Below are positions 7,088 to 22,558 of a DNA stretch of 26,338 nucleotides, one piece after another. Location: the IMG/VR virus record IMGVR_UViG_3300031772_000240, positions 1 through 26,338 of that record; one strand, written 5' to 3'. Position 1 is the stretch's first letter. The number at the start of each line of letters is the position of its first letter. Below the pieces are notes generated by a model. That model searched no databases and was not told the origin of the DNA. It worked only from the letters and a program-made list of their open reading frames with translations. This stretch comes from a virus. The translations under genes and the position numbers were made by a program.

Positions 7088-7944
7088 AGCGGCTGGCTGG
7101 TCGGCGCGTCGTGGCAGCGATCAGCGGTGGCAAGGACTCGGCGGCAATGTCGCTGCACCTCACCGAGCTTGGCGTCGAGCACGATAGGGTGTTCATGGAC
7201 ACGGGCTGGGAACGTCCTGCGACGTATGAATATCTGCGCGGGCCGCTGACCGAGAAGCTGGGGCCGATCGTGGAGGTCGGCAGACCCGGCGGAATGGTGC
7301 AGCTGGTGCGCGACAAAAAAATGTTCGCGGGGCGGATCGCGAGGTTCTGCACCGAGGAACTGAAGTTGGCTCCCATGAAAGCGTACATCCAGGGCCACGA
7401 GCATGACGTCGTCAACGCTGTAGGCGTGCGCGCTGCGGAATCCCTGTCCCGCGCAAAACTGACACCGTGGGAGTGGTCGAGCGGGCTCGATTGCGAGGTT
7501 TGGCGTCCGGTGCTCCGGTGGACGTTTGACGACGTGGTCGCGATACACAGGCGGCACGCCCTGGAGCCGAATCCGCTGTATGCGCTCGGCGCTGAGCGTG
7601 TTGGGTGCTGGCCTTGCATATTTGCGCGCAAGGACGAGATCCGCTTGCTCGCGGAGATGGACCCGGCGCGCATCGCGGAGATCGCTGCGCTGGAAACGGA
7701 GTTGGACGCTGGCCAGGCAATTCGTGCGGCTGCCAAAGGCGTGCCGGTGAAGCGGCGACCGACGTTTTTTTCTCGGCCAGAGTTCGCTGACGGCGTAGGG
7801 CACACGCCGATCGCCAGGGCTGTCGAATGGTCGCGCACGGCGCACGGCGGAAATCAATTTGAGCTTTTCCACGATCCCAGCAACGCGGGCTGCATGCGCT
7901 GGGGAATGTGCGACACGGGCGACGACAAGGAAGATGCCGAGTAG
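7060..7944 (+). CDS. PAPS reductase / DndC-like ATP pyrophosphatase
   Basis: This 294-residue protein starts at GTG 7060 (GTG 7072 is an alternative), overlapping the ParB-methyltransferase gene by 28 bases. The PP-loop SGGKDS lies at 22-27. RFCTEELK (95-102) and GVRAAES (122-128) are the next conserved boxes of the PAPS reductase family. A four-Cys set, Cys183 and Cys186 in GCWPC with Cys278 and Cys284 in GCMRWGMC, suggests an iron-sulfur or zinc site as in DndC and related enzymes. The family activates substrates with ATP and handles sulfur. It is much shorter than DndC and no DndD or DndE is visible. With the preceding gene it suggests sulfur-based or ATP-activated DNA modification; sulfate assimilation is the alternative. 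Confidence 0.8.
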   Translation: MRWNVGTEVERLAGRRVVAAISGGKDSAAMSLHLTELGVEHDRVFMDTGWERPATYEYLRGPLTEKLGPIVEVGRPGGMVQLVRDKKMFAGRIARFCTEELKLAPMKAYIQGHEHDVVNAVGVRAAESLSRAKLTPWEWSSGLDCEVWRPVLRWTFDDVVAIHRRHALEPNPLYALGAERVGCWPCIFARKDEIRLLAEMDPARIAEIAALETELDAGQAIRAAAKGVPVKRRPTFFSRPEFADGVGHTPIARAVEWSRTAHGGNQFELFHDPSNAGCMRWGMCDTGDDKEDAE

Positions 7945-9439
7945 CGTGGCCAGTCCCGCTCCTGGTCGCGTAGACCCGCTGGTGGCGGCTCGGGCGCTGC
8001 GCTCGGCGCAGGTTGTCGAGGCGCGGCGCTCGGTGGCAGCGTTCACCGAGTTGGCGATGACCGACGAGGCGACGGGTCGCCGCATGCGGAACGCGGAGTT
8101 TCACCGAGAGTGGCAAGCGCACCTCTCTGCTCACCGGCTTGCGGTGCTGGTCGCTCCGGTCGAGCACGGCAAGACCCAGCAGATCGTGTCGAAGGTCATC
8201 CACGCTCTGGGTGGCAATCCGGCGCTCCGCATAGGTCTGATCAGCAACACATCATCCCAAGCGGAAAAGGTGCTCAGGCAAGTTCGCTCCACGATCGACC
8301 GCAACGAAGCTGTGCGCGAGGTGTTCCCTGACCTGAAGCGCTCGACCCGGGAAGAGGATCCCTGGCATAGCTCCGCGATCACGGTCGAGCGCACCACGAC
8401 CGCCAAGGATCCCAGCGTCCAAGCGCTCGGCGTGTTCGGGCAGATCGTCGGCTCCCGGCTGGACGTGATCGTGCTGGACGACGTGCTCGACTTCGAAAAC
8501 ACGCGCACCGAGGAACAGCGCGCGAAGTTGCTGGAGTGGTTTGACACGTCCGTTCTGACCCGGCTCACCGATGGCGGGTGCGTGTGGTGCATCGGCACGC
8601 CCTGGCACCAGGACGATCTGCTCAACGTCCTGTCGAGTCGGCCTGGGTTCGTTGCGCTCCGCTACTCAGCGGTCAAGAACCCGGACGCGAATCCATCGGG
8701 CTGGGTTCCGCTCTGGCCGCAGGTCTGGTCGGTGACTCGCCTTGTCGAGCGCGCGGCGAACACGCTGGAGTCGGTGTTCCAGCGCAAGTATTTGTGTCGG
8801 GTGCGGCTCGATGCGTCGGCGCGCTTCAAGCAGGCGTGGCTCGACCGCATGACTCAGCTGGGAAAGGGTCTGACGTTCTACGCCGAAGCGCCAAAGGCTC
8901 AGGGCGGCGTCCGGTCGTTGCCGTGCTTCACCGGCGTCGATCTCGGCATCGGGCTCGGTGACTCGGATGCGCTCACGGTGCTGTTCACGCTCGCGCTCCG
9001 CGACGACGCGCGTCGCCTGGTGGTGAACATCGAGGCGGGCCACTGGCAGGCTCCCGAGATCCTGGACCGCATCGTGTCGCACTACCGGCGGTATAGCTCG
9101 GTGATCTTTGTGGAGTCGAACGCGGCGCAGGCGTTCATCACCCAGCTTGCCAACGAGCAAGTCCCGGTCGCTGCGTTCCACACGGGCGCGAACAAGTGGG
9201 ACGAGGAATGGGGCGTCGAGTCCCTGGCGGTCGAGATGCGCGGTATGCAGTGGGTTCTACCCTCCGGCGCAACCGGCGAGTCGCTACCTCCAGAGGCTCG
9301 GGCATGGCTGCGCGAGATGCTGTATTTCTCACCAGGCGCTCACACGGGCGATCGGCTCATGGCGTCCTGGCTCGCTCGTGAAGCGCTGCGCCGATTCTCT
9401 GCTTCGAAAAGAACGCGGATCGACACTCAGAGCCGGTAG
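7934..9439 (+). CDS. terL: Terminase large subunit
   Basis: This 501-residue protein starts at ATG 7934, with AAGGA at 7927-7931, overlapping the upstream gene by 11 bases. It is the packaging motor that pumps DNA into the prohead and cuts concatemers. ATPase motifs: APVEHGKTQ (74-82, Walker A variant with Glu-His-Gly-Lys-Thr), DVIVLDD (177-183, Walker B), and IGTPWH (220-225, coupling motif). The C-terminal RNase H-like nuclease shows Asp336 in GVDLGIG, Glu394 in FVESNAAQ and Asp473 in TGDRLM as metal ligands. Length is normal for the family. It heads the packaging and head module. The predicted small subunit is not adjacent. Confidence 0.93.
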   Translation: MPSSVASPAPGRVDPLVAARALRSAQVVEARRSVAAFTELAMTDEATGRRMRNAEFHREWQAHLSAHRLAVLVAPVEHGKTQQIVSKVIHALGGNPALRIGLISNTSSQAEKVLRQVRSTIDRNEAVREVFPDLKRSTREEDPWHSSAITVERTTTAKDPSVQALGVFGQIVGSRLDVIVLDDVLDFENTRTEEQRAKLLEWFDTSVLTRLTDGGCVWCIGTPWHQDDLLNVLSSRPGFVALRYSAVKNPDANPSGWVPLWPQVWSVTRLVERAANTLESVFQRKYLCRVRLDASARFKQAWLDRMTQLGKGLTFYAEAPKAQGGVRSLPCFTGVDLGIGLGDSDALTVLFTLALRDDARRLVVNIEAGHWQAPEILDRIVSHYRRYSSVIFVESNAAQAFITQLANEQVPVAAFHTGANKWDEEWGVESLAVEMRGMQWVLPSGATGESLPPEARAWLREMLYFSPGAHTGDRLMASWLAREALRRFSASKRTRIDTQSR

Positions 9440-9460
9440 CACTGAGGGCGTGGTCGGTGG

Positions 9461-9472
9461 TAGGCTCCGCGC
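9461..9472 (+). promoter_or_regulatory. Possible leaderless -10 box before ATG 9473
   Basis: TAGGCT at 9461-9466 ends exactly six bases before ATG 9473, where no Shine-Dalgarno site is visible. This geometry is that of a leaderless transcript starting at the A of ATG, common in actinobacteria. No strong -35 box is evident (weak TAGCAC at 9437-9442). Treat as tentative. Confidence 0.35.
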
Positions 9473-9889: not shown

Positions 9890-9903
9890 GCGGAGGCTGA
9901 CCG

Positions 9904-11550
9904 ATGGCCGACGGTATTCTGGCAGCAGGGGAAACTCTCTACCCCGATCTTGACGGCATCGACCTGCAGGTCACTTGCGGCTGCGAGCGGTTCCGCCACC
10001 TGGACATGATGGAGTCGTATTTCCGCTGCACGCAATACGACGCTCGGCGCTACACCTGGGACGGCAACCGGCGCGGGTACGACGGCGAGTCAGACATCGC
10101 TCCTGGCTGGTACGTCCCACTGAAGCTGCGACGTCCGTCCGCTCGCTACGATCTCCCGAGGCTGATCGTCGGGCGTCTGACCGCGATGGTGTTCGGCGCT
10201 GAGCGGTTTCCGCAGCTGGTGGTAGAGGGCGACGAGGACGCCCAAGACTATGTGCGCGAACTGGCGCGCGAAGCTCGGCTGAACATCAAGTTGCAGGAGA
10301 TGCGCGACAAGGGCGGCGCACAGGGCACCGGCGTCCTGTCGTTTGGGTTTGTCGATGGCAAGCCCCGGGTGAACGTCCACAACGCCAAGCACGTCACGGT
10401 GCTCCGCTGGGCCGATCGCTACCTGTTCCGACCGGCTGCGGTGCTGGAGTGCTACGCATACAAGCGGCTGGTCTACGATCGCGCAACCGGGCGCACGCGC
10501 GAGGTCGTGGTCTACTTCGCTCGCTACTGGGATGAGAAAGAGGAAGTCGTATGGGATCCGATCTCGGAGGAGTCCGCTCGGCGTCCTGGCTTCTGGCCGT
10601 CGCTCCCCAAGGCCAGGGCTGAGCACGGACTCGGGTTTTGCCCGGTCTACTGGACCCAAAACCTGCCTGATTCGGATGGCATGGACGGCGACTCCGACTT
10701 CCAAGGCCAGACCGATCGCGCTGACGAGATGAATGTCCTGCTTTCGGCCACCGGCAAAGGGACAATCGCCAACGTCGATCCGACCCTGGTGATCAAAGAC
10801 GACCCGGTGATGAATGGCGGCACGGTGCGTAAGGGCTCCGACAACGCCATCTATTCGAAGGGCGGCGCTGAGTACCTGGAGCTACGCGGCGACTCGCTCA
10901 AGGCGGCGCTGGCGCTCCTGGCCGAGCACAAGGCGCAGGCGCTGGACACTGCCAGCGTGGTGCTCGGTGACCCGAGCATGGCGGGCAAGGCGGCGTCGGC
11001 GGCTGCGCTGCGCGTGCTCTACCTGCCGATGATCAACCAGGCCGACAAGCTGCGCGAGCAGTACGGTCAGACGGTGTGCATCCTGATGCGCGACATGCTG
11101 CGCGCTGCGAAGCAAGTCGGCGCTCGGGCTGGCGGCGAGATCGTCGTCACCTCCGACGGGCAACGGATGCAGCGCTTCCCGGCGGTCACGCTCGATCCCC
11201 GAGTCGAGGACGACGTCATGGTGGCGCGCACTCCGGGCACCCGCGATTCGGTCACGATAAACTGGCCACCCTACTTCCCGAATAGCTGGGCCGATACCAA
11301 GAGCGCGGTGGATGCTCTGGTCGCCGCATCGGGTTCCAAGTCGATCATCAGCCGTCGCACGGCGGTGGAAAACGTCGCTCCGCTGTTCGGCATTGCCGAT
11401 GTCAACGAGGAACTGGAAGCGATGGACCAGGACAAGGCCACCGATGTCGCTTTCGCTCAGCAGGCGCTCGCGCTGGCGGGCGACGAGGGCGGCGGCGCGG
11501 GGAACGGTTCCGGCTTCACCGGAGAACGGCAGAACGACGGCGAGGATTAG
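9904..11550 (+). CDS. Portal protein (SPP1 gp6-like)
   Basis: This 548-residue protein starts at ATG 9904, with GGAGG at 9892-9896. It forms the dodecameric ring through which DNA enters and leaves the head. Supporting features: length and position directly after terminase and before a MuF protein; the N-terminal RRPSARYDLPRLIVGRLTAM, typical of the wing/clip start of SPP1-type portals; the GDEDAQDYVRELAREA stem helix; the conserved GGTVRKGSDNAIYSKGG region; and helix LAALLAEHKAQALDTASVV-like residues leading into the crown. The acidic, Gly-rich C-terminus is normal for portals. Family call is by synteny and overall pattern, and is confident. Confidence 0.85.
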   Translation: MADGILAAGETLYPDLDGIDLQVTCGCERFRHLDMMESYFRCTQYDARRYTWDGNRRGYDGESDIAPGWYVPLKLRRPSARYDLPRLIVGRLTAMVFGAERFPQLVVEGDEDAQDYVRELAREARLNIKLQEMRDKGGAQGTGVLSFGFVDGKPRVNVHNAKHVTVLRWADRYLFRPAAVLECYAYKRLVYDRATGRTREVVVYFARYWDEKEEVVWDPISEESARRPGFWPSLPKARAEHGLGFCPVYWTQNLPDSDGMDGDSDFQGQTDRADEMNVLLSATGKGTIANVDPTLVIKDDPVMNGGTVRKGSDNAIYSKGGAEYLELRGDSLKAALALLAEHKAQALDTASVVLGDPSMAGKAASAAALRVLYLPMINQADKLREQYGQTVCILMRDMLRAAKQVGARAGGEIVVTSDGQRMQRFPAVTLDPRVEDDVMVARTPGTRDSVTINWPPYFPNSWADTKSAVDALVAASGSKSIISRRTAVENVAPLFGIADVNEELEAMDQDKATDVAFAQQALALAGDEGGGAGNGSGFTGERQNDGED

Positions 11551-11553
11551 CCG

Positions 11554-14500
11554 GTGGCAAGTCCTGACGACGCGCTGATGACGTCAATCGGGCGCGCTCA
11601 GCGCCTAATGGATGCAGGGGCCGACGGCGCTGGCTTGCTCAAGATGCTCCAGGGCGCTGACCTGGACCTGAAGAAGCGGCTCAGTACGGTCGCGATCTCG
11701 CATGGGCTCGCTTCCACGTTCTCGGGCGCTCAGGCGCAGGCGTACATGCTGCAGGCGGCGGTCGTCACCGAGTACGTCAAGGGGCGCGTGGCGGGGCTCA
11801 CGCACGCTTCTGCGTCAATGGGATACCAGCAGTCGGCGGTGGCGGCTGGCGCGCTCCTGAACCAGCTGAACGTCGCGTTCACCGGCGTCACGATCCCGCT
11901 CCGGCTGCGAGAGGCGGGGCAGATCGGCGGCGTGGTCGCTGCGGGGTTCCAGCCCTTGCTGGCTCAGCACGCGACGTCCGTCGACCGCTACGGGCACGCC
12001 ATGATCGGTGAGTTCCGCCAAATCATGATGCGGGGAATGGTCGCGGGAGCCACCAACGGGCAGCTTGTGGACGCCCTGGTGGGCCACGGCGGTCCCAAGG
12101 GGCCAGCGGTCAGCCTGGCGGCTCGGGTCGATCCTGCGACCGGCAAAGTGGTTCGACTGCGCGAGCAGGACATTCCCGAGGGACTGTTCGTGCGCAAGCG
12201 CTACTGGGCTCAGCGCATCGTGCGCACCGAGACCGCTCACGCGCAGAACGAGGGCGCGCTCCAGGCGATGCACGAGCAGGCCAAGGAGTTTCCCGACATG
12301 GGAAAGAAGATCCTGGCGGTTCTTGACAACCGGACGGCCCCCGACTCGCTCTATGTGCATGGTCAGGTTCGCGGGCTCAACGATCTGTTTCAGGACGGCG
12401 CGGGTCGGCAGTACCTCCGTCCACCTGGTCGCCCAAACGACCGAGAGACGATCGTGCCCTGGCGGCTGGCGTGGGCTGAAACTCCCTACTCGGCTCCGGT
12501 GCCACCCGAAGAAGTTGCGCAGGCTCAGATGGCGCATCAACCGGCTGGCCAGGCTCGGCGGCTAATGGTCGAGCAGCTGACCGAGCAGGCGGCGGCGGAA
12601 CACGAGGTCGCGGCTCCGGCGTGGCATGGGCTCCAGCGGGTGCAAGCCCTGGTCCAGACGAAGCGCTCCGAGATCGCGGTCCAGGAACAGCAGGAGGCGA
12701 CGGCGGCTCTGGCTGCGAAAGCGGAAGCGGCTGCCAAGGTCAAGGCGCTCAAGGACAAGCTGAAGGCGCAGATCGCGGCTGCCAAGGCGCAGGCGGCGGC
12801 TGATGCGCAGGCGGCTGCCACGGCGGCTGCGAAGCTCCAGGCGGAAGCCGAAGCGACTGCGGCGGTGAAGGCCGCTGAAGTCAAGGCCAAGATGGACGCC
12901 AAGGCGGCTGCGGCGCTGGCGGGCACTCCGGCTGGCAAGGAGGCGGCGCACGGTGTGCAGCTGGCGGCTGCGGTGGAGAACCTGAAGGCGCACCCGGCTG
13001 GCATTGAGAAGGCTCTTGCCTCGATGCTGAAAACGAATCCGAAGTGGTTCGCGCTCCTGTACGACAAGTACGTCAAGGGGTGGGGCGGGCTGTCTCCGAA
13101 GTTCATGGACAACGCCAGCACAGGCTCGGTGGCGTCGCTCGCGAAGAAGCTCGGCGCGGTGGTCCCGCCCAAGCAGAAGAAGGTCGCTCCGATGGCTCCT
13201 GGTGCCATCCCGACGCACACGAAGAAGGGCATCCCATTCATCAGCGAGATGCCGACTGCCGAGGACGTGCTGAAGAAGTACGACCTGAAGCTGGTCGGCA
13301 ACTACCTCGATATCCACGACAAGACGACCGGCGGGAAGCTCGGCTACCTCATGGTCGAGGGCAGCGGCTACTCGGTTTCTCCACCGCTGACGACCGGGAT
13401 GCAGACCAAGACGTTTATCGGTCGCTCGGCGTTGCCGGAGGCGATTCAGTACGGGCTCGCGGTGTCCAAGAAGATCCAGGCCGACAAGGCGGCTCCGGCT
13501 CCGGTCGCGAAGGCGGTTCCGGTTCCGGCTCGGGCGGCGGCTCCGGCGTCAAAGTACAAGGCGTGGAAGCGCAAAGCGATCACTGAAGATCCGGCTGACG
13601 AGTTGGAGAAGCGCTGGAACACGCGACGCGCTGGTGTTGGTGTCGCCGCTGATGGCGATCAGGTCGATGGTCAGTCGATCACCGTGCAGCAGGAAACGGA
13701 CATGGACGGTCGGGTGATGCTGGTCGCTCGATTCAAGATCACGGAGCGGGCTCGCGCTGGCGCGCTGAAAAAGATTGCAGCCGCGACCAACCCTGTCGAT
13801 GAGGGCGGCGTGTCGAAGTGGGTAGCCGGGAGCCGCTACGGCGGGGTGGCGTATGAGAAGCTGGACCCGGCGCTGTCGGAAATCCGTCGCGTGCCGGTTG
13901 CTCCGGGCGAGGAAGCGACTCTGGTTCCTGCGGTCGAGTCAATCAAGAGATTGCGGTCGAAGGATTCCAGCGTGATGCTATTGACCGGCGAGAGGTCAGA
14001 ATCCGACGGGTCGCTCGGTGCTGTTCACAACGCGGTGGAGATTCGCGTTCCGATGCCGACGTCGGGAAAGAAGTTCGACGCCATCGCAGCTGCGGCGATG
14101 GAAACTCTCGGGGTCGACATCAGCAAGCTGCCTGACAAGCGTGCGCAGCAGGCGTCGCTGCAGGCGTCGCTGATTCGCAAATACGGGTTCGGGCCACGTC
14201 AGTCGGACCTGACAAACGTGCTCGACAGTCGTGGTGTCAGTACTCGGCAGATGCAGGATGAGATCGAGATAATCTACAAGCGAACGCTCGGTGGCCTACC
14301 GGACGATGAGCGGAAGATGATGGAGAGCACCGCAGCCGACGCCAAGCTGGTCGAGGTTGCTCCTGGTCACGTTGCGCTGTTCTCTCAGTCGCTGGCCGAC
14401 AAGGCCGTTGCGAACGGTCGCATCGTCTACCACTCGTTTTCTAAGGGCACCGAGTTTGTCATGCAGCAGGTATTTGCTCGCAACGGTGGCGTGGCCAGCG

Positions 14501-14946
14501 GCTCATCGCTCCTGTCGTCGCGTGAACGCTACCAGCGGGGCGTGTTCATAGACGGCTGTTCGACCCCGAGAGATTTCGCCACGGGTGGCGCTGACTCGGT
14601 GTTTACGCGGCTGTCGAATGTCGCGAAGGTGGACGATCAACTGACTCAGAACTCCATGATAATCGATCCCAGTGAGCTTGGCAGGCTCGACCGCTATGCC
14701 TTCAACGAGGACAAATATGGACGTGTTCTGGCTGGCGAGCGGCGCATGGAATCGGAGGTTCTGAGCGCGACCGGGCGGGACGGATCTGACAACGAAACGA
14801 TGTTCCGGCACTCGATCTCGATGCAGTCGGTGCGTCGGGTAAAGATAGCCAAGCGCGACGTGCGGGAAGGTGTTATTCTGTCGTTGCGTGAGCAGGGTGT
14901 AAGCGAGATGAACGGCATCCCGCTGGACGAGTTTTTCGGAAGCTGA
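11554..14946 (+). CDS. MuF minor head protein with C-terminal DarT-like ADP-ribosyltransferase domain
   Basis: This 1130-residue protein starts at GTG 11554, three bases after the portal stop. Residues 1-310 are the MuF/SPP1 gp7-type head-morphogenesis domain, ending with RIVRTETAHAQNEGALQAMH, DNRTAPDS, PPGRPNDRE and PWR. Residues 350-460 are an Ala/Lys coiled-coil stalk; 480-670 holds unknown small domains with Ala-Pro linkers. Residues 950-1130 resemble a DarT-type ADP-ribosyltransferase in motif order: VYHSF with His960, GGVASG, RERYQRG from Arg990, GGADSVFTRL from 1011, and NETMF with Glu1081 at the site of the catalytic Glu, followed by a SISMQSVRRVKIA strand. MuF proteins can be carried in the virion, so the enzyme may be delivered with DNA. 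MuF is firm, ART strongly suggested, target unknown. Confidence 0.8.
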   Translation: MASPDDALMTSIGRAQRLMDAGADGAGLLKMLQGADLDLKKRLSTVAISHGLASTFSGAQAQAYMLQAAVVTEYVKGRVAGLTHASASMGYQQSAVAAGALLNQLNVAFTGVTIPLRLREAGQIGGVVAAGFQPLLAQHATSVDRYGHAMIGEFRQIMMRGMVAGATNGQLVDALVGHGGPKGPAVSLAARVDPATGKVVRLREQDIPEGLFVRKRYWAQRIVRTETAHAQNEGALQAMHEQAKEFPDMGKKILAVLDNRTAPDSLYVHGQVRGLNDLFQDGAGRQYLRPPGRPNDRETIVPWRLAWAETPYSAPVPPEEVAQAQMAHQPAGQARRLMVEQLTEQAAAEHEVAAPAWHGLQRVQALVQTKRSEIAVQEQQEATAALAAKAEAAAKVKALKDKLKAQIAAAKAQAAADAQAAATAAAKLQAEAEATAAVKAAEVKAKMDAKAAAALAGTPAGKEAAHGVQLAAAVENLKAHPAGIEKALASMLKTNPKWFALLYDKYVKGWGGLSPKFMDNASTGSVASLAKKLGAVVPPKQKKVAPMAPGAIPTHTKKGIPFISEMPTAEDVLKKYDLKLVGNYLDIHDKTTGGKLGYLMVEGSGYSVSPPLTTGMQTKTFIGRSALPEAIQYGLAVSKKIQADKAAPAPVAKAVPVPARAAAPASKYKAWKRKAITEDPADELEKRWNTRRAGVGVAADGDQVDGQSITVQQETDMDGRVMLVARFKITERARAGALKKIAAATNPVDEGGVSKWVAGSRYGGVAYEKLDPALSEIRRVPVAPGEEATLVPAVESIKRLRSKDSSVMLLTGERSESDGSLGAVHNAVEIRVPMPTSGKKFDAIAAAAMETLGVDISKLPDKRAQQASLQASLIRKYGFGPRQSDLTNVLDSRGVSTRQMQDEIEIIYKRTLGGLPDDERKMMESTAADAKLVEVAPGHVALFSQSLADKAVANGRIVYHSFSKGTEFVMQQVFARNGGVASGSSLLSSRERYQRGVFIDGCSTPRDFATGGADSVFTRLSNVAKVDDQLTQNSMIIDPSELGRLDRYAFNEDKYGRVLAGERRMESEVLSATGRDGSDNETMFRHSISMQSVRRVKIAKRDVREGVILSLREQGVSEMNGIPLDEFFGS

Positions 14947-14948
14947 TC

Positions 14949-15269
14949 ATGGAACCGAATTGGCCAGAGGCGGCATTGATTGAGCAGGGCGATGGCCTGG
15001 TGGCTCTTGCTCCGCGCATGGCGCGGGTGGACCACACGTTTGTGGTGTTCTGGTTTGAGGCGCAGCACGAGCGGGGCGTGGTGTGCCAAGAGTTGAACGA
15101 CTCTCAGGCTCCGGCGCTCATCACGTTCACTGGCCAGAATGGTCGGCTATGGCGGTTCCGGCAGCTGACGGTCGATCTCTGGAATGAAAAGGTCGCGGCG
15201 CAGACCATCGGCAAGGTTCGCTTCAAGACCGAAGCGCAGATGATGGAGTCGCTGAACCGAGAGTGGTAG
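14949..15269 (+). CDS. Unknown 106-residue protein between ART and macrodomain genes
   Basis: ATG 14949 lies two bases after the MuF-ART stop, so it is probably translated by coupling. The product is rich in aromatic residues and beta-predicted (HTFVVFWFEAQHERGVV, PALITFTGQNGRLWRFRQ), with a helical C-terminal end. It has no signal, membrane segment or Cys cluster. The family is not recognised. Being placed directly after an effector-like domain and before a macrodomain, it could hold the ART inactive during assembly (an immunity or chaperone protein). An ordinary head-completion protein is equally possible. Confidence 0.6.
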   Translation: MEPNWPEAALIEQGDGLVALAPRMARVDHTFVVFWFEAQHERGVVCQELNDSQAPALITFTGQNGRLWRFRQLTVDLWNEKVAAQTIGKVRFKTEAQMMESLNREW

Positions 15270-15277
15270 CGGGCCGT

Positions 15278-15310
15278 CCGTTACTAACGGTTTGGCGGTC
15301 CAGTCGGACC
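15278..15310. promoter_or_regulatory. Two adjacent palindromes before the macrodomain gene
   Basis: CCGTTA-C-TAACGG (15278-15290) is a perfect 6-bp inverted repeat around one base, shaped like a protein-binding operator. Seven bases later GGTCC-AGTC-GGACC (15297-15310) is a perfect 5-bp hairpin with a four-base loop. They fill most of the 55-base gap between 15269 and the start at 15325. The second could be a weak terminator or a site controlling the macrodomain gene. No clear promoter boxes are seen. Confidence 0.5.
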
Positions 15311-15324
15311 AGTAAGGCGGAAAC

Positions 15325-15861
15325 ATGGAACTGAGAACACCGTTCGTAACGCGGGCTGGCTCACTGATTCCGGTGGTCGGCAATCTCTGGGATTACCACG
15401 ATGCGGGCTGGCGGGTGGTCGTCACCACAAACATCGGGTGGCACCCGGCCACGCTGGCGAACAACATGGGGGCGGGCTCGGTGGCGGCTGCGGCTCGTAC
15501 TTGGCCTGACCTGCAGACCTGGTATGGGGCGCTCTGCAAGAAGCACGGCAACGCGCTCGGCGTGGTTCAGTATCGCTCGCGGCGGCTGATGTTCCTGCCT
15601 GTCAAACCGTTGCTGTCGGTTTCGGATCCCGAGCGCTCCTGGGATCAGGAAGCCAGCATGCCGCTGATCGATCGCGGACTCCACGATCTGAGCCGGATCG
15701 CTCTGAGCGAGGTCGGGCCGCGCATCGCTCTGGCGTTCCCTGGATGCGGCAACGGCGGGCTGAGCAGGCGAGCGGTGCTACCGCTGATGCAGCGCTGGCT
15801 CAGTCCCGCTGCGCGGGCTGGGGTGGTGCAGGTTGTAGAGTTTGATCTGAGTTCGTTCTGA
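15325..15861 (+). CDS. Macrodomain protein, DarG-like ADP-ribosyl hydrolase candidate
   Basis: This 178-residue protein starts at ATG 15325 behind AAGGCGGA (15313-15320). It shows the ordered motifs of a macrodomain: VVVTTNIGWH (31-40) with Asn36; NNMGAGSVAAAA (46-57), the ADP-ribose-binding Gly loop; PDLQTWYGALCKKHG (61-75); LMFLPVK (88-94); and ALAFPGCGNGGLSRRAVLPL (135-154), the second phosphate-binding loop. Macrodomains bind or remove ADP-ribose; DarG is the antitoxin that strips it from DNA modified by DarT. The fold here occupies the whole protein, without DarG's extra C-terminal DarT-binding domain. Two genes upstream lies a DarT-like domain, which argues for an eraser or self-protection role. 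Fold very likely; activity inferred. Confidence 0.8.
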   Translation: MELRTPFVTRAGSLIPVVGNLWDYHDAGWRVVVTTNIGWHPATLANNMGAGSVAAAARTWPDLQTWYGALCKKHGNALGVVQYRSRRLMFLPVKPLLSVSDPERSWDQEASMPLIDRGLHDLSRIALSEVGPRIALAFPGCGNGGLSRRAVLPLMQRWLSPAARAGVVQVVEFDLSSF

Positions 15862-15922
15862 GGTAGCTTTGCCTGCGTGGGGCGCGTGCCACCTACCCCC
15901 CGGAGTCGCGCGTCCTGCCGAC

Positions 15923-15962
15923 CCGCCCCACCCGTTGCGTTATGAGCATCGGCGTGGGGCGG
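15923..15962 (+). terminator. Long-loop inverted repeat after the macrodomain gene
   Basis: CCGCCCCAC (15923-15931) and GTGGGGCGG (15954-15962) are perfect 9-bp arms with a 22-base loop. The stem is very GC-rich but no T-run follows. It sits directly before promoter-like boxes at 15963-15991. Termination of the upstream unit or a regulatory hairpin are both possible. Confidence 0.4.
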
Positions 15963-15991
15963 TTCACTTTCCGCGCTCGGCGTGGCATGCT
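15963..15991 (+). promoter_or_regulatory. Possible promoter for a leaderless gene at 15999
   Basis: TTCACT (15963-15968), a 17-base spacer and CATGCT (15986-15991) resemble sigma-70-type boxes. The -10 box ends seven bases before ATG 15999, where there is no ribosome site, so a leaderless message is plausible. The same 7-base geometry occurs before ATG 16404. Predicted by eye only. Confidence 0.4.
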
Positions 15992-15998
15992 CCGGCGC

Positions 15999-16370
15999 AT
16001 GGACAAACCCAGCGATGTCGTGTTCAGGCCGTTCTCACTTCCCGGCGACGAGGCAAAGGTGCTCGCGGACTGGAAGCGGGAACACCCCGAAGAGGCTGCG
16101 GAGGTCGCTCGGTTTCCCGGCGACCAGACAGAGTCTGAGCGCGCGGCTCGGATGTACGAACACGCAATGGGCGAACGCGCCGAGTTGATGCAGCGCCAAG
16201 GGTGGCCGCAATCGGGCTGGTCGGACGACTCCAGCCAGCCGCAAAGCTCGGCGGGCGTGGCGCGCGACGCTGACCTGGCGGAACAGCGGCGGTCGCTGCG
16301 CGGCGGGCTGAGCGACGCTCCTGGCGATGCGCGGGCGACCGACGACAACCGAAAGCCGTTCAAGCTGTAG
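15999..16370 (+). CDS. Hypothetical acidic small protein
   Basis: ATG 15999 is preferred to the in-frame ATG 15942 or 15987, because the upstream ones lie inside an inverted repeat or promoter-like boxes and have no ribosome site. The 123-residue product is charged and low in hydrophobics. It has helical DEAKVLADWKREHPEEAAEV and ERAARMYEHAMGERAELMQR segments, then a Ser/Gln-rich and Asp/Arg-rich tail. It is probably a partly disordered head-associated or accessory protein. No family recognised. The next gene begins 33 bases later, again with promoter-like boxes in between. Confidence 0.5.
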   Translation: MDKPSDVVFRPFSLPGDEAKVLADWKREHPEEAAEVARFPGDQTESERAARMYEHAMGERAELMQRQGWPQSGWSDDSSQPQSSAGVARDADLAEQRRSLRGGLSDAPGDARATDDNRKPFKL

Positions 16371-16396
16371 ACGTGCGGCGCGCGTCGTGGCATAAC
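16368..16396 (+). promoter_or_regulatory. Possible promoter for a leaderless gene at 16404
   Basis: TAGACG (16368-16373), 17 bases, then CATAAC (16391-16396), ending seven bases before ATG 16404, which has no Shine-Dalgarno site. The local string GTGGCATAAC parallels GTGGCATGCT before the gene at 15999. Weak match to consensus; reported because the geometry repeats. Confidence 0.3.
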
Positions 16397-16403
16397 GTCG
16401 GGC

Positions 16404-16658
16404 ATGGCAAATTTCCCATTCCCCCGGTCGTCTGATTCGGCAAGTGGTCCCGATCTCGGCTCCGAGCAGGATCCCGAGTTCACTCAGGACGGCGCACCTG
16501 GTGGCCGGTCGCTTGGCGACGATCTGCCGAGCGTGGCGGTTCCCGGTGGCCAGCCGTTCATCCTGACGGGGTATTCCCCTCAGTCGGACCAGGACTCGCT
16601 CCCGGCTCCCGGCTCTACCGACGGCAACGGCAAGGCTCCCGAAGGCAACCGGCGCTGA
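16404..16658 (+). CDS. Hypothetical disordered Ser/Pro/Gly-rich protein
   Basis: This 84-residue protein starts at ATG 16404. Its composition is dominated by Ser, Asp, Gly, Pro and Gln with few large hydrophobics (for example SSDSASGPDLGSEQDPEF and a C-terminal GSTDGNGKAPEGNRR), so it is almost certainly disordered. Such short proteins near capsid genes can be scaffold-like or virion-internal, but nothing specific is recognised. No ribosome site is visible; a leaderless transcript may serve it. The coding call is moderate because low-complexity sequence in a GC-rich genome is easily open by chance. Confidence 0.45.
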   Translation: MANFPFPRSSDSASGPDLGSEQDPEFTQDGAPGGRSLGDDLPSVAVPGGQPFILTGYSPQSDQDSLPAPGSTDGNGKAPEGNRR

Positions 16659-16690
16659 TCCTTTGGTTCGGTTTGCCTGGAGGTCGATGA

Positions 16691-17419
16691 ATGGGCGCTC
16701 AGCAAGTTGAGTTGACGGGTCAGATCACGGTCGGCGGCTCGGCTTGCGCTGACTCCTGCGTCGGCGGCTCGCTCAAGCAGCAGTCGCTTTCGCTGCGTTG
16801 CTCTGGCCAGTGGTATCCGGCGGTGGTGTCCACCGATGTCCCGGTGCAGATTCAGACGGCTGGCGCGGTCGGCGCGGCCTGGGTCGAAGCTCCCACGACT
16901 GACGCGCTCGACAAGATCGAGCTTCTGATGCTGCGCGGCAACGCTCCGATGCGCGTGCGCGTCGGCGCTGCGGTGGCTCGGTTGCTGAGCACGGCGGTCG
17001 TGTTCCCTGTCACGTTCGTTGCTGAGACCCTGATCTTCATGGTGGACGGCGGCGCGGCAATCACATGCACGTTCACCGCTGGGGTCAAGACGGCGCAGCA
17101 AATCGTCAACGCGCTCAATGCTGCGGCTGCGCTAGCTGGCGGGCTCGCGGTGCTGCCGTGGAGCGTCGACACGAGTGGTCAGATCGCCCTCTCGGGCGTG
17201 GCAACCGGCGTGCAGGGCGCGGTCGCGGTGACCGGCGGAACAGCCCAAGCGATGCTCGGGTTCGCTGTCACGAGCACCGCTGTCGGCGCTGGAGCCGATA
17301 CCGACTTCGTCGGGCTCTACCTGGTCGAGTATGGTCGTGGCTCAATCCTGGCTCCGTCCCGGGTCCAGGTGAGCGGCATCGGCCAGCTGGAAGTGTTCGC
17401 GGCAGGCACTACCGCCTGA
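16691..17419 (+). CDS. Putative virion structural protein
   Basis: This 242-residue protein starts at ATG 16691 behind GGAGG (16679-16683); ATG 16687 is out of frame. The sequence is beta-rich with many Ala, Gly, Val and Thr. Residues 130-215 show a pattern recurring in phage and flagellar-type structural proteins: TAQQIVNALNAAAALAG, SGQIALSGVATGVQGAV, then GGTAQAMLGF. This suggests an outer-surface or tail/neck beta-domain. Two N-terminal Cys (SACADSC) could pair or bind metal. Position between packaging and scaffold genes supports a structural role. The following terminator-like hairpin suggests its message can end independently. Confidence 0.6.
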   Translation: MGAQQVELTGQITVGGSACADSCVGGSLKQQSLSLRCSGQWYPAVVSTDVPVQIQTAGAVGAAWVEAPTTDALDKIELLMLRGNAPMRVRVGAAVARLLSTAVVFPVTFVAETLIFMVDGGAAITCTFTAGVKTAQQIVNALNAAAALAGGLAVLPWSVDTSGQIALSGVATGVQGAVAVTGGTAQAMLGFAVTSTAVGAGADTDFVGLYLVEYGRGSILAPSRVQVSGIGQLEVFAAGTTA

Positions 17420-17426
17420 CCGCACG

Positions 17427-17450
17427 GCGCGGGTGTTCCGCGCTTTATCT
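17427..17450 (+). terminator. Hairpin terminator
   Basis: GCGCGG (17427-17432), loop GTGTT, CCGCGC (17438-17443), then TTTATCT. A perfect 6-bp GC stem followed by a short T-rich run is a rho-independent terminator layout. It lies eight bases after the stop of the 16691 gene and before the ribosome site of the next one. Confidence 0.6.
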
Positions 17451-17468
17451 GACAAAGGAAACAACGCG

Positions 17469-18116
17469 ATGTCTCGATCACTCCGCACCGTTCTCAACGA
17501 GTCCAATCCCAACAAGATATCGGACGCCATGAAGGCGGTGCGCGTCGGTGACGCGCTCGCGGTCCTGCCGCGTCGCATCGCGGCTGCGGTCGTGGCGCAC
17601 GTCCTGGTGCTGCCGGAGGACGCCAAGGCGGCGGTCATTCTGCAATGCCTGGTCACGGCGGGCGGCGTCACGGGCCGCTTCACGGCGGTGTCGGCAGACG
17701 CGACTCCGGCGACAACCGAGTGCGGCGTGAATGCCGCTGGCAACATCCAGTTTCTCGCTGCGGACGCTGTCACGCTCGCAGAGGTGGTCTACGTCCCGAT
17801 GGAAGGCGGCGTGGTCGAGGACTTGCTTCCGGTCGCAGCCGACGTCGGCACGTTCCTGCAGAGCCGCAAGGCGCAACAGCTTCTGGCTGTCACGGCGACC
17901 GCTGGCGGCGCTCCGGGCGTCAAGACCCTGGTCACGCTGCGCGGCGCGACCCCGGCGGCTGGCTCGTGCGCCATCAACCTGCTCGGCACTGGCGTCGTGT
18001 TCGCCGCTGCGGACGCGATCACCGCTTGCACGGCTCGCTACGTCGCGCAGCCCGGTGTCGGCGGCGCTTCGGGTCCGATCGGCAGCGTGCTCGACGCGCA
18101 GCAGTCGGCGCTGTAG
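17469..18116 (+). CDS. Putative capsid decoration or virion protein with internal duplication
   Basis: ATG 17469 is chosen because AAAGGAAA lies at a normal distance and the frame upstream crosses the terminator. The 215-residue product is Ala/Val/Gly-rich and beta-predicted. Two halves look alike: residues 78-110 (ATPATTECGVNAAGN, then IQFLAADAVTLAEVVYVP) and 160-194 (ATPAAGSCAINLLGTG, then VVFAAADAITACTARYVA), so a domain was duplicated. Small two-domain beta proteins next to scaffold and capsid genes are often head decoration proteins. It is flanked on both sides by terminator-like hairpins, which fits a highly expressed structural gene. The family itself is not recognised. Confidence 0.6.
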   Translation: MSRSLRTVLNESNPNKISDAMKAVRVGDALAVLPRRIAAAVVAHVLVLPEDAKAAVILQCLVTAGGVTGRFTAVSADATPATTECGVNAAGNIQFLAADAVTLAEVVYVPMEGGVVEDLLPVAADVGTFLQSRKAQQLLAVTATAGGAPGVKTLVTLRGATPAAGSCAINLLGTGVVFAAADAITACTARYVAQPGVGGASGPIGSVLDAQQSAL

Positions 18117-18132
18117 TCGCGAGAATTTCAGA

Positions 18133-18179
18133 TGAGCGCCGCCGCTCACCGGCTCCTATCCGGTGGGCGGCGGCGTTCG
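18133..18179 (+). terminator. Strong hairpin terminator
   Basis: The core arms CGCCGCCGCTCACCGG (18137-18152) and CCGGTGGGCGGCGGCG (18160-18175) pair over 16 positions with one G-T, closed by loop CTCCTAT. The stem can extend about four more pairs, to 18133/18179. AATTTATGTAAA follows, an AT-rich if imperfect tail. It lies 17 bases after the stop at 18116, a clear transcript end or attenuator. Confidence 0.7.
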
Positions 18180-18237
18180 CAATTTATGTAAACACCTTGA
18201 CGCCACGGCTGCGGATTTAGCCGGATGAGGAAAAGCC

Positions 18238-18939
18238 ATGTTCATCACCAACCTATCCCGAGGACCGCTGCGCGCGCCTGAAGGCGAGCCAACTGGAGGG
18301 GGCGCACCAGCCGATCCTCCAGCGCCTCCAGCGCCACCGGCACCCGAGCCGCCGACCTCGATCACGCTGACGTCGGAGCAACTGCGCGACCGGCTGGATC
18401 GCAGCAAGACCTCGTTTCTTCGGGCGCACGGATTCGGCAGCGAGGAAGAACTGAAGGCGCTTAAACAGCGCGACGCCGATCGCGCAGCCACCGAGGAAAC
18501 AAACCGCAAGGCCACAATGACTCGCGAGCAACAGCTTCAAGAGGAGCTTGCGCAGGAGCGGGCCGGTCGCGCAGCGTCCGACGAGCGGGCGCAGCGAGCA
18601 TCGTTCGACCGACACGTCGCTGGCGTGTGCGCAACGCTCGGCGTCAGGAATCTCGACTACGCGACGTTCCTGGTCGAGCAAGCCGCTCAGGCAACGCCAG
18701 ACGGCGCAGAGTTGGACGTGCAGGTATGGCTGCAAGCTCGGATGGAATCGCACCCTGCGACTCGTGCGGCGCTCGGAATGGACGCCCCGGTGTCGACTGT
18801 GGTCGATCCGGTCACGACCGTCCCAGGCTTCAATCCGCCAGCGCCGCCACGCCCCGGCGCGCCACCTCAGACCAACGATGCGTTCGGGATGGACGCGGCA
18901 ACGTGGATGGCGCGTCGCGAAGCACTCGGCATCACTTGA
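18238..18939 (+). CDS. Capsid scaffolding protein
   Basis: This 233-residue protein starts at ATG 18238, with GAGGAAAAG upstream. It lies immediately before the major capsid gene, the usual scaffold position. It has a proline-rich disordered N-terminus (PADPPAPPAPPAPEPP), a charged helical/coiled-coil centre (EETNRKATMTREQQLQEELA onward, about residues 82-125), and a Pro/Gly-rich C-terminal tail ending in FGMDAATWMARREALGIT. The last helix, often basic in scaffolds, binds the inner capsid surface. No protease signature is present. The length and composition match scaffolds of SPP1/N4-like heads. It would be expelled or removed during head maturation. Confidence 0.75.
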   Translation: MFITNLSRGPLRAPEGEPTGGGAPADPPAPPAPPAPEPPTSITLTSEQLRDRLDRSKTSFLRAHGFGSEEELKALKQRDADRAATEETNRKATMTREQQLQEELAQERAGRAASDERAQRASFDRHVAGVCATLGVRNLDYATFLVEQAAQATPDGAELDVQVWLQARMESHPATRAALGMDAPVSTVVDPVTTVPGFNPPAPPRPGAPPQTNDAFGMDAATWMARREALGIT

Positions 18940-18964
18940 ACCTGACGCGGCGCGGTGATACGCT
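18936..18964 (+). promoter_or_regulatory. Promoter for the major capsid gene
   Basis: TTGAAC (18936-18941) and TACGCT (18959-18964) are separated by exactly 17 bases, the best sigma-70-type match in the window (TTGAxx and TAnnnT). Transcription would start near 18971, giving a leader of about 93 bases before GTG 19064. The -35 box overlaps the scaffold stop codon. Confidence 0.6.
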
Positions 18965-19063
18965 CGCGCTCAATCAGTAGGCACTCGCGCTACGCACACG
19001 ACGGCGGTTCCTGTCGGCAATCAGCGAGAGCACACTTGAGGTCCACCACAACGGAGGTGTCTC

Positions 19064-20452
19064 GTGTCGCTCGCACTCGCAGGAATCCCATCGCAAATTC
19101 AGAATCTTCTCCAAGACCGCACACTCGAGCGCGTCTTCCACGACAACCTGTTTCCTCGCATGCTCTTCCGAGCAGAGGCGCGCCCCGAAGTCTGGGCCGC
19201 GAACCTTGGCGAGCGCATGATCTTCACCCGTGCGGGCGCGATCCCGGTCGACACGACTCCGCTCGTGCCCGGTCAGGATCCGATCCCGAGCACCTACGCC
19301 ACCGAACAGTGGGAGGCCGAAGCTCGCCAGTTCGCCAAGACCATCGACACGCACATGCCGTCGAGCGTCACCGCGCTCGCGTCGCTGTTCCTGCGTAACA
19401 CGCAGCAACTCGGTCTGAACTCCGCGCAGACGATGAACCGTCTGACCCGCGACCCGCTGTTCACCGCCTATCTCGGCGGCGAAGCGATGATGAAGACGGC
19501 GGCGCTCGCGGCTGCGACCACGCTTCACGTCACAACGCTGAACGGCTTCACCCAACAGATCCAGAACGGTCGCCTGAGCGCGGTGTCGGCGGTCAATCCG
19601 CTCGTCATTCGTTTCTCGACCGCAGAACCGGCGAACACCGTCGTCGGCTTCGTGCCTGACGTCGCAGCCGAGCCCAACGGCTCCGGCACGCTGTCGCTTG
19701 GCGCGGCGCTTGTGGGCGGCTTGGCGCTCCGTGTCGGCGTGTTCGCAGCCACTCGCAGCCGTCGCTTGCGCGTCGGCGCTGGCGCGACGGTGGATGCGCT
19801 TGTCGCAGCCAACATCATCACCCTGAACGACATCATCGCTGGCGTTTCGCGGCTGCGCGCACAGAACGTGCCTCCGCATCCCGACGGGCGCTACCACGTC
19901 CACATGACCCCGGCGGCTGAGGCCGAAATCTTCCAAGACAATCACTGGCAGCGTCTGCACCAGTCGTTGCCCGACGGCGCGCCCTACCGCGACCTCGCGA
20001 TCGGCGAAGCGGTCGGCTGCTACTTCTACCGAAACACCGAGAACCCCGACGCACAGAGCACGCAAGCGTCGCGAGCGTTGTCGGATCCCGGCGGCGCTGG
20101 ATTCGCTGTCCTCGCGCCCGAAATCGGCGGCGAGATCATCAACGCGGCGGGCGTTCCCGTGCTGCGGACCATCATCACCGGCGGTGGCGCGATCTATGAG
20201 AAGTACATCGACGAGGGGCAGTACATCACCGAGGCGGGAGTGACCGGTAAGATCGGTCAGTTCAGCATCATCAACGGCGGCGTCGCGATTATGACCCGCC
20301 GCATTCGGTTCATCCTGCGCTCGCCGCTGGACCGCATGCAGCAGCTTGTGTCGCAGACGTGGTCGTGGTCGGGCGACTTCCCGATCCCGTCCGACGCCCT
20401 CTCGGGCGACGGCGCTCGCTTCCTGCGGGCGGTCGTGATCGAGCACGGTTAG
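19064..20452 (+). CDS. Major capsid protein (N4 gp56-like)
   Basis: This 462-residue protein starts at GTG 19064, with GGAGG at 19053-19057. It lies directly after the scaffold. The sequence has features of HK97-fold capsid proteins of the N4 gp56-like class: N-terminal helical segment (LLQDRTLERVFHDNLFP), an E-loop-like beta stretch around GERMIFTRAGAIPV, a long central region with TAYLGGEAMMKTAALAA, and the conserved C-terminal DGRYHVHMTPAAEAEIFQD and DLAIGEAVGCYFYRNTENP. The 124-base leader and its own promoter, together with a strong downstream hairpin, fit very high expression. No decoration insertion is obvious. Confidence comes from order, length and motif. Confidence 0.85.
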   Translation: MSLALAGIPSQIQNLLQDRTLERVFHDNLFPRMLFRAEARPEVWAANLGERMIFTRAGAIPVDTTPLVPGQDPIPSTYATEQWEAEARQFAKTIDTHMPSSVTALASLFLRNTQQLGLNSAQTMNRLTRDPLFTAYLGGEAMMKTAALAAATTLHVTTLNGFTQQIQNGRLSAVSAVNPLVIRFSTAEPANTVVGFVPDVAAEPNGSGTLSLGAALVGGLALRVGVFAATRSRRLRVGAGATVDALVAANIITLNDIIAGVSRLRAQNVPPHPDGRYHVHMTPAAEAEIFQDNHWQRLHQSLPDGAPYRDLAIGEAVGCYFYRNTENPDAQSTQASRALSDPGGAGFAVLAPEIGGEIINAAGVPVLRTIITGGGAIYEKYIDEGQYITEAGVTGKIGQFSIINGGVAIMTRRIRFILRSPLDRMQQLVSQTWSWSGDFPIPSDALSGDGARFLRAVVIEHG

Positions 20453-20472
20453 TTCTAAGGCACGAACACTCG

Positions 20473-20520
20473 ACGCCTTGACCTGCGGCATGTACGCTGC
20501 GGGTCAGGGCGTTGTGCTTT
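20473..20520 (+). terminator. Strong hairpin terminator after the capsid gene
   Basis: Arms at 20473-20489 and 20496-20512 pair over 17 positions without bulges (three are G-T), closed by loop ATGTAC. TTGTGCTTT follows at 20512-20520. It begins 21 bases after the capsid stop. This is the most convincing terminator here and would limit read-through to the connector genes. Confidence 0.8.
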
Positions 20521-20530
20521 GGAGGGTGTG

Positions 20531-21046
20531 ATGAATCTCGACACGATGACTCGCGACCAGTTGATCGAGCAGGCCGATGCCTTGGGCCTCGAGATTCCGA
20601 AGGGCGCATCGAAGGCTGCGGTGCGGTCGGCGGTGGAGGATGCAATCGCGCAGAAGCATCTCGCGGTGACGACACCGCTTGTCGTTGGCGCATTGACCGC
20701 CGAGCAGCGTGTGCTGCTGGCTGGCGCAAGCGACACTGAGATCGAGCAGGTTCTGCTCGACCCGGTGGTCCCGTCCTGGTGCAAGGCCGAATTTATGGCC
20801 GAGCTTGGGCGGCGTTCCGCATCGGGCCGGAAGTCGCAGATCGCCGAGTACATCGTGACGAAGGGCGGGCGCTACTTCGTTCCCGGCCACGGGACCGTGC
20901 TGCCGAACGGCTCGGTCATATCGGCAATGACTCATAACCTGGACGACGTGCGGTCGCAGGGCATTGAGTTTGAGCCGCTTGTCGGTCGCGTGGAGGCGTA
21001 TGAGGACCAGCTTGGATTCGTGAAGACCAGAATCATCGGAGGCTAG
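20531..21046 (+). CDS. Head-associated protein with SAP/HeH-like N-terminus
   Basis: ATG 20531 is selected because GGAGGG (20521-20526) lies four bases upstream; an earlier in-frame GTG at 20519 lies against the terminator tail. The 171-residue product begins with MTRDQLIEQADALGLEIPKG and a following VRSAVEDAI helix, the layout of a short helix-extended-helix (SAP/LEM-like) motif, often found at the end of phage capsid-neighbour proteins. The rest is mixed alpha/beta with KGGRYFVPGHGTVLPNGSV. Position directly after the capsid gene suggests a head-stabilising or connector-associated protein. No catalytic motif is seen. Confidence 0.65.
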   Translation: MNLDTMTRDQLIEQADALGLEIPKGASKAAVRSAVEDAIAQKHLAVTTPLVVGALTAEQRVLLAGASDTEIEQVLLDPVVPSWCKAEFMAELGRRSASGRKSQIAEYIVTKGGRYFVPGHGTVLPNGSVISAMTHNLDDVRSQGIEFEPLVGRVEAYEDQLGFVKTRIIGG

Positions 21047-21049
21047 TCA

Positions 21050-21457
21050 ATGGCGTTCACGGAACAGCAGAAGGGCCGCGTGCTCCACCATCTAGGATAT
21101 CCGAACTGGTCGATGCTCAGTAACGGCATCCAACTCGGCTTCCCCGCTGGCGCGCAGCCGCTGTTCCTGGTCGAACAGGCATTCAAGCTGCTGACGCCCG
21201 ACGGCGAGGCCGAGGTCGCAAACGATATCTGCGAGTGCGACGCCATCGAGTGCCAGTTGACCGACGCCAGGTCGCGTTTCCGGGCGCTGGAAATCGGCGA
21301 GCTAAAGCTGAACCCGCACGAGCCGCGCCAACTGCGCCAGGAGCTTTTCTGGTGGAGGAATAAGCTGTCGGATGACCTCGGCGTCGCTCCGAATCCTCGC
21401 TCGATGATGGCGTTGTCGGGTGAAGCTGGAGGCATTAACGCTCGGGTGCTGAGGTGA
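21050..21457 (+). CDS. Putative head-tail connector (adaptor)
   Basis: This 135-residue protein starts at ATG 21050, three bases after the previous stop. It is helical with a conserved-looking hydrophobic/aromatic face (HHLGYPNWSMLSNGIQLGF near the N-terminus) and a C-terminal RQLRQELFWWRNKLSDDLGV helix. Its size, helical bundle prediction and place as the first of the small genes after the capsid match gp15/gp6-type adaptors, which join portal and tail. Family not proven by motif. It overlaps the next gene by four bases. Confidence 0.6.
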   Translation: MAFTEQQKGRVLHHLGYPNWSMLSNGIQLGFPAGAQPLFLVEQAFKLLTPDGEAEVANDICECDAIECQLTDARSRFRALEIGELKLNPHEPRQLRQELFWWRNKLSDDLGVAPNPRSMMALSGEAGGINARVLR

Positions 21458-22547: not shown

Positions 22548-22558
22548 GAGCGTTTGCG

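What the first reader, a model, noticed from the sequence alone, without database searches (positions are those of the whole stretch)
15325..15861. Stand-alone macrodomain inside the head gene cluster
Seen: TTN, NNMGAG and FPGCGNGG loops in macrodomain order over the full protein. Known: macrodomains (DarG, TARG1) remove ADP-ribose. Inference: the phage carries its own eraser, either to protect its DNA from the MuF-linked ART or to defeat host DarTG defence. An insertion of several residues (GWHPATLAN) between the TTN strand and the Gly loop differs from DarG as I know it.
Basis: partly seen in the sequence, partly recalled or inferred. Interest (0 to 1): 0.75.

Follow-up and report, generated by a model that had tools for sequence, protein, structure and literature searches.

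The report
Phage macrodomain paired with head-protein ART
A phage gene for an ADP-ribose-removing enzyme sits in an exchangeable cassette directly behind a head protein that ends in a probable ADP-ribosylating toxin, so it most likely protects the cell that makes the toxin, although no activity has been shown.

Summary
The gene at 15325-15861 (+, 178 aa) encodes a real stand-alone macrodomain. The predicted fold (pLDDT 91.8) matches DarG first (Z 17.1) and TARG1 next (Z 15). DarG's essential Lys80 and Asn22 correspond to K94 and N36. It is not a DarG: the DarT-binding C-terminal domain is missing.

The gene is part of a cassette: MuF head protein with a C-terminal domain (CTD), then a 106-aa ORF (P0004), then the macrodomain. 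A sister phage (95% identical downstream) has exactly this block, 12607-15951, replaced by a kinase-like CTD plus another small ORF, and no macrodomain. In a survey of MuF relatives, 7 of 8 phages with an ART-like CTD encode the macrodomain and 0 of 10 without one do (only about 3 independent contrasts). In another phage, CTD + P0004 + macrodomain sit behind an unrelated MuF. The window's CTD is a distant DarT-like ART by profile comparison; its fold could not be confirmed.

Best explanation: enzymatic arm of immunity to a head-borne ART, like BAH for Bxa. This is inferred from genomics; no activity is shown. Most other phage records with this CTD lack the macrodomain, so it is a lineage-specific addition. 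Counter-defence against host DarTG is not excluded.

The parts
15325..15861 (+). stand-alone macrodomain, 178 aa (P0001), DarG/TARG1 class
15424..15477 (+). loop 1: TTN-IGWHPATLAN-NMGAG (res. 34-51), with N36 = DarG N22 and the family-conserved extra residues
   Evidence: DarG N22 role from PMC5179494
15604..15606 (+). K94, equivalent of the catalytic Lys80 of T. aquaticus DarG; invariant in the 8 MuF-linked copies
   Evidence: PMC5179494
15739..15762 (+). Gly loop PGCGNGGL (res. 139-146), ADP-ribose loop (DarG G117-G121)
14949..15269 (+). 106-aa ORF (P0004), acidic; its family directly follows this CTD type; candidate specific inhibitor of the CTD
11554..14946 (+). MuF-type minor head protein, 1130 aa, with long linker and C-terminal toxin-like domain
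14161..14946 (+). CTD: DarT-like ADP-ribosyltransferase candidate (H960, F1017, E1081); AlphaFold model poor
12607..15951 (+). exchange block: non-homologous between window and L015/L014 while both flanks align (78% upstream; 95% and 79% downstream)
15942..16370 (+). conserved flank gene downstream of the cassette (same slot in relatives)
7859..9439 (+). terminase large subunit
   Evidence: phrog_38, 1.5e-57
9904..11550 (+). portal protein
   Evidence: phrog_64, 1.2e-10
19064..20452 (+). major head protein
   Evidence: phrog_1357, 1.9e-9

Best explanation
The macrodomain is the enzymatic arm of immunity against the toxin-like ADP-ribosyltransferase carried at the C-terminus of the neighbouring MuF head protein. 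Steps shown: it is a DarG/TARG1-class macrodomain with the catalytic Lys and Asn; it belongs to the exchangeable CTD cassette; it accompanies ART-type CTDs and not other CTDs in this phage group. Steps inferred: the CTD ADP-ribosylates something in the cell (for the DarT-like CTD perhaps DNA thymines); the small ORF binds and restrains the CTD during assembly; the macrodomain removes ADP-ribose that escapes, so that virions with the toxin can be built without poisoning the producer or the phage genome; the MuF-ART is then carried in the head and delivered on infection.
For: Fold and residues: with DarG mutagenesis from PMC5179494. Cassette swap with homologous flanks between window and L015; the CTD also has lower G+C (58.8% against about 65% in neighbours). 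Co-occurrence in the MuF-N-terminus survey: 7 of 8 ART-CTD phages have the macrodomain (six adjacent, one 8.4 kb downstream in the same slot), 0 of 10 others (Fisher p 0.00025). Two well-supported sister contrasts: window/L014 and L009/L029. Same CTD + small ORF + macrodomain behind a different MuF subtype in L047/L048. No ARH or NADAR hydrolase in the 14 records searched. The CTD is DarT-like: Pfam DarT is the family hit by most members (5 of 36, best E 0.0096) and hhalign score 33.0 (E 0.0011) against 100 shuffled decoys with a maximum of 16.5. Precedent: Bxa, a prophage MuF-ART with a hydrolase (BAH) and a binding immunity protein (Bsi), PMC11699363.
Against: The macrodomain was not found in 41 other records carrying this CTD family (many are fragments), nor in L019 and phage Pan1, so this ART does not need it. 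It is the small ORF, not the macrodomain, that tracks the CTD almost everywhere. Four relatives pair the macrodomain with R-S-E ARTs that look arginine-specific (ExE); by established knowledge macrodomains do not cleave ADP-ribosyl-arginine. The phylogenetic contrasts are only three (sign test p 0.25). The CTD fold was not confirmed. Related phage macrodomains occur without any MuF-ART (L140, L142-L153). No biochemical data.
Confidence: 0.55

Rival explanations
1. Counter-defence: the macrodomain, made late or carried in the virion, reverses ADP-ribosylation by host DarTG or removes soluble ADP-ribose signals made by host defences; its place next to a MuF-ART reflects a general 'ADP-ribose' island.
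For: Same class as DarG's own antitoxin domain. Iyer et al. (PMC9503650) predict that phage macrodomains mostly counter host ADP-ribose signals and may be packaged. Relatives without MuF-ART exist in other phages. Phages do encode anti-DarT factors (AdfB, PMC11481870).
Against: The gene is exchanged together with the CTD and is absent when the CTD is not an ART, which counter-defence alone does not predict. It lies among late head genes, whereas AdfB is expressed early.
Confidence: 0.2
2. Accessory or passenger: the small ORF is the only real immunity protein; the macrodomain is a cassette passenger or handles ADP-ribose released by CTD NADase activity rather than adducts.
For: The small ORF follows almost every CTD copy, often with a 4-nt overlap or small gap; the macrodomain is present in a minority. 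Its pairing with ExE ARTs is hard to explain as adduct removal.
Against: Catalytic residues stay invariant across strongly diverged copies (about 40-47% identical), so the enzyme is under selection. It is retained with two different ART clades and two MuF subtypes.
Confidence: 0.15
3. Virion cargo acting with the ART: both are packaged, and the macrodomain erases or edits ART marks on the incoming phage genome or host targets after injection, as a timing switch.
For: Genes lie inside the head cluster beside the portal and MuF. [quoted passage not shown]
Against: The macrodomain is not fused to any head protein in the eight MuF-linked copies; no proteomic data.
Confidence: 0.1

Closest known systems
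Bxa / Bsi / BAH of a Bacteroides stercoris prophage (PMC11699363)
   Same: MuF-type N-terminus with C-terminal ART; two immunity genes next to it, one small and one an ADP-ribose hydrolase
   Different: BAH is an ARH1-like hydrolase; here the hydrolase is a macrodomain, and the window's CTD is DarT-like; function untested here
DarTG toxin-antitoxin system (PMC5179494)
   Same: DarG-class macrodomain with the K80 and N22 equivalents; a DarT-like domain next door
   Different: DarG's C-terminal DarT-binding domain is absent; the DarT-like domain is fused to a phage head protein; a separate small acidic ORF lies between
TARG1 (C6orf130)
   Same: Fold (Z 15) and catalytic lysine
   Different: About 14% identity; the position of TARG1 Asp125 is not conserved in this family
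phrog_335 / 'phosphatase' or Appr-1-p phage macrodomains
   Same: Best library family for P0001 (E 8.7e-10); similar extra residues before the Gly loop in phage relatives
   Different: Relatives L142-L153 are not placed in a MuF-ART cassette
MuF polymorphic toxins (PMC5576092)
   Same: Variable C-terminal toxin-like domains on MuF, followed by small ORFs, swapped between phages
   Different: Adds an enzyme to the immunity side; temperate life of this virus not shown
PARG macrodomains protecting against RhsP2 (PMC11833690)
   Same: Macrodomain hydrolase that relieves an ART toxin
   Different: PARG class, not encoded with the toxin; RNA 2'-OH adduct

Membership tests
Macrodomain superfamily | six-stranded mixed sheet fold with ADP-ribose loops | tested here: met
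   AF2 pLDDT 91.8; DarG Z 17.1, TARG1 Z 15
Macrodomain superfamily | ADP-ribose binding or hydrolysis | not testable with these tools
   residues conserved only
DarG / TARG1 class | catalytic lysine and the Asn of the first loop | tested here: met
   K94 and N36 align with K80 and N22 (PMC5179494); invariant in 8 copies
DarG antitoxin | C-terminal DarT-binding domain after the macrodomain | tested here: not met
   protein ends after the macrodomain; only positions 26-139 of 338 matched, 32.7 bits against cut-off 250
DarTG system | stand-alone DarT gene next to it | tested here: not met
   no PF14487 match in G001, the longer contig of the same virus; instead a DarT-like domain fused to MuF
MuF polymorphic toxin system | MuF N-terminal domain with variable C-terminal domain | tested here: met
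   PHROG head morphogenesis 5e-7, Pfam Mu_F below cut-off; CTD swap
MuF polymorphic toxin system | toxic CTD neutralised by downstream gene | not testable with these tools
   needs expression assays
MuF polymorphic toxin system | encoded by a temperate phage | tested here: inconclusive
   eight larger upstream ORFs gave no integrase, but the record is a fragment
ADP-ribosyltransferase (window CTD, DarT-like) | ART fold | tested here: inconclusive
   model pLDDT 59, no fold match
ADP-ribosyltransferase (window CTD, DarT-like) | sequence kinship with H..Y/F..E ARTs including the catalytic Glu | tested here: inconclusive
   Pfam DarT in 5 of 36 members, best E 0.0096; hhalign E 0.0011, score 33 against decoys at most 16.5; the Glu (E1081) is invariant in the family

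The most novel reading that the evidence does not exclude
A head-borne, split DarTG: the phage fuses a DarT-like DNA-ADP-ribosylating domain to its MuF head protein for injection, and keeps the DarG functions as two separate genes, a small inhibitor and a free DarG-type macrodomain. The same macrodomain is re-used with other ART classes whenever the toxin module is swapped. The virus also encodes an amino acid:DNA transferase cassette, so its own thymines may be modified and shielded from a thymine-targeting ART.
Probability: 0.2. Interest if true: 0.85.

Novelty: new variant of a known kind. Interest (0 to 1): 0.6.

Why it matters
If true, macrodomains join ARH hydrolases as dedicated enzymatic immunity in MuF phage toxin cassettes, and DarT/DarG-like chemistry appears as a head-delivered phage weapon rather than a host defence. 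It also gives an uncharacterised CTD family (65 viral loci found here) a testable activity and a candidate inhibitor family.

Tried and rejected
Pfam-A on the macrodomain: no hit. PDB sequence search with CTD profiles: nothing. ARH (PF03747) and NADAR (PF08719) as alternative erasers in 14 related records: none. Stand-alone DarT in the virus's longer contig and the L003 record: none. A link between the CTD and thymine hypermodification: ADDT found in 1 of 30 records only, the window's own virus. The idea that every ART of this type needs the macrodomain: rejected. Close relatives of P0004 in annotated phages: none.

Full report
OBSERVATION. The ORF 15325-15861 (+) encodes 178 aa with TTN, NNMGAG and PGCGNGG in macrodomain order. 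Library hits: phrog_335 8.7e-10, PADLOC DarG 1e-7, NCBIfam DarG 4.5e-8 over positions 26-139 of 338 and below its cut-off. A profile of six relatives hits M. tuberculosis and T. aquaticus DarG macrodomains at 9e-7 and 8.6e-6. AlphaFold2 gives pLDDT 91.8. Best structures are DarG 5m3e (Z 17.1, 2.7 A over 145 residues) and TARG1 (Z 15.2). DarG residues whose mutation abolishes or cuts activity, K80 and N22 (PMC5179494), correspond to K94 and N36, both invariant in eight relatives. They sit in the loop after strand 30-36, next to the distal-ribose site by homology, so they may affect substrate choice (inference).

SURROUNDINGS. The window is a viral record of 26,338 bp. A second contig of the same virus (G001, 36.6 kb, 100% identical over the 12-13 kb compared) extends upstream. 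Upstream of the macrodomain lie the terminase, portal and a 1130-aa MuF-type head protein, then a 106-aa ORF starting 2 nt after the MuF stop, then after 55 nt the macrodomain; downstream lies the major head protein.

CASSETTE. In L015, a sister phage, window 7975-12607 aligns at 78% and 15951-23915 at 95%, but 12607-15951 does not align. There the MuF C-terminus is PI3/4-kinase-like (PF00454, E 0.0032, below cut-off), followed by one other small ORF, and no macrodomain was found in the record. The C-terminal domain, P0004 and the macrodomain are thus exchanged as one block. The CTD has 58.8% G+C against about 65% in neighbouring genes.

CO-OCCURRENCE. A profile of the MuF N-terminus found 24 loci. 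After removing duplicates and truncated ones, eight carry ART-like CTDs (window, L003, L005, L006, L007, L009, L019, L026) and ten do not (L014/L015 kinase-like; L018 and L028 with HExxH motifs; L022; six short MuFs). The macrodomain is present in seven of eight and none of ten. In the L026 phage it lies 8.4 kb downstream in front of the same conserved flank gene. Fisher p is 0.00025, but relatedness leaves three independent contrasts, in which the macrodomain follows the ART in 2.7 on average and never goes the other way (p 0.25). The query profile was built from macrodomain-bearing loci, which may bias the sample. L047/L048 carry the window-type CTD on a different MuF subtype that my MuF profile does not match, followed by a P0004 homologue and the macrodomain. 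The eight MuF-linked macrodomains form one group (support 88/85, not decisive) that does not sort by ART type.

WHAT THE CTD IS. In L003, L006, L007 and L009 the CTDs show R-S-E ART motifs (FRG/WRG/YRG, an S-rich strand, ExE), with weak Pfam ART hits for L006 and L009. The window-type CTD belongs to a family found at 65 viral loci, mostly at the end of large proteins. In 36 members an H, an F/Y strand and a Glu are conserved. Pfam's DarT is the family hit by most members (5 of 36, best E 0.0096). HMM-HMM comparison with DarT proteins drawn from bacterial genomes gives score 33.0, E 0.0011 over 199 columns, against at most 16.5 for 100 shuffled decoys, 15.5 for the reversed alignment and about 14 at most for unrelated families. 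With a narrower set of seven DarT sequences the score is 25.6 and the best of 100 decoys reaches 22.2, so this evidence is moderate. The invariant Glu (window E1081) aligns with DarT's QAE glutamate. The fold itself was not confirmed. It may correspond to the 'N4-like' ART family reported fused to MuF (PMC9503650); this was not tested.

SMALL ORF. Nearly every CTD copy with sequence downstream is followed within a few nucleotides by a gene of about 105-140 aa, or in some large phages by a longer one. P0004 homologues were detected after the nearest ten or so copies. In the L006/L007 group a different small ORF family fills this slot. So the small ORF changes with the CTD type while the macrodomain stays.

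MECHANISM. By analogy with Bxa (PMC11699363), where BAH reverses ADP-ribosylation and Bsi blocks the toxin, I propose P0004 as the blocking partner and the macrodomain as the eraser (inference). The main tensions are: the macrodomain is missing from 41 other records with this CTD family, from L019 and from Pan1; and macrodomains are not known to cleave ADP-ribosyl-arginine, the expected product of ExE ARTs (established knowledge). It may therefore act on other adducts or on by-products.

NOVELTY. Macrodomain antitoxins (DarG), MuF-ART toxins and hydrolase immunity (BAH) are each known. A macrodomain in a swappable MuF-ART cassette was not found in the papers searched. Most subscription papers are not held, so this is not proof of priority.

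Noticed in passing
L042:2456-5195 (G001, longer contig of the same virus): P-loop kinase (PF18751), PLP enzyme and amino acid:DNA transferase (PF18724, 3.2e-21): a thymine hypermodification-like cassette; no thymidylate-synthase-like gene found in the contig.
   Followed up: partly
L071-L134: The window's CTD belongs to a widespread uncharacterised phage domain family, often at the end of 1000-3000 aa proteins, almost always followed by a small ORF.
   Followed up: partly
L014/L015:11000-12709: Sister phage's MuF ends in a PI3/PI4-kinase-like domain with its own small downstream ORF, another probable toxin module of the same slot.
   Followed up: partly
L018:9600-10550 and L028:8500-9984: MuF proteins whose C-terminal parts carry HExxH (HEELH, HETLH), peptidase-like.
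   Followed up: no
L010:8226-10228 (Desulfuromusa MAG): An ART-like gene that resembles DraT followed by a DraG-like hydrolase fused to a macrodomain of the same wider family (read from sequence).
   Followed up: no
L142, L145-L150: Relatives of the macrodomain in other phages sit next to sulfotransferase-like and glycosyltransferase-like genes, not next to MuF-ART.
   Followed up: no
L051:5772-8555 (Pseudanabaena phage Pan1, UXO93730): Annotated head morphogenesis protein carries a divergent copy of the CTD followed by a small ORF; no macrodomain found in the genome.
   Followed up: partly
L042:7849-10739: MoxR AAA ATPase and VWA protein pair in a phage.
   Followed up: no
window 5918-7087: ParB_N domain followed by a methyltransferase-like domain in one protein.
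   Followed up: no
window 24113-25714: Protein with many PHROG tail-fibre and collagen-like matches.
   Followed up: no
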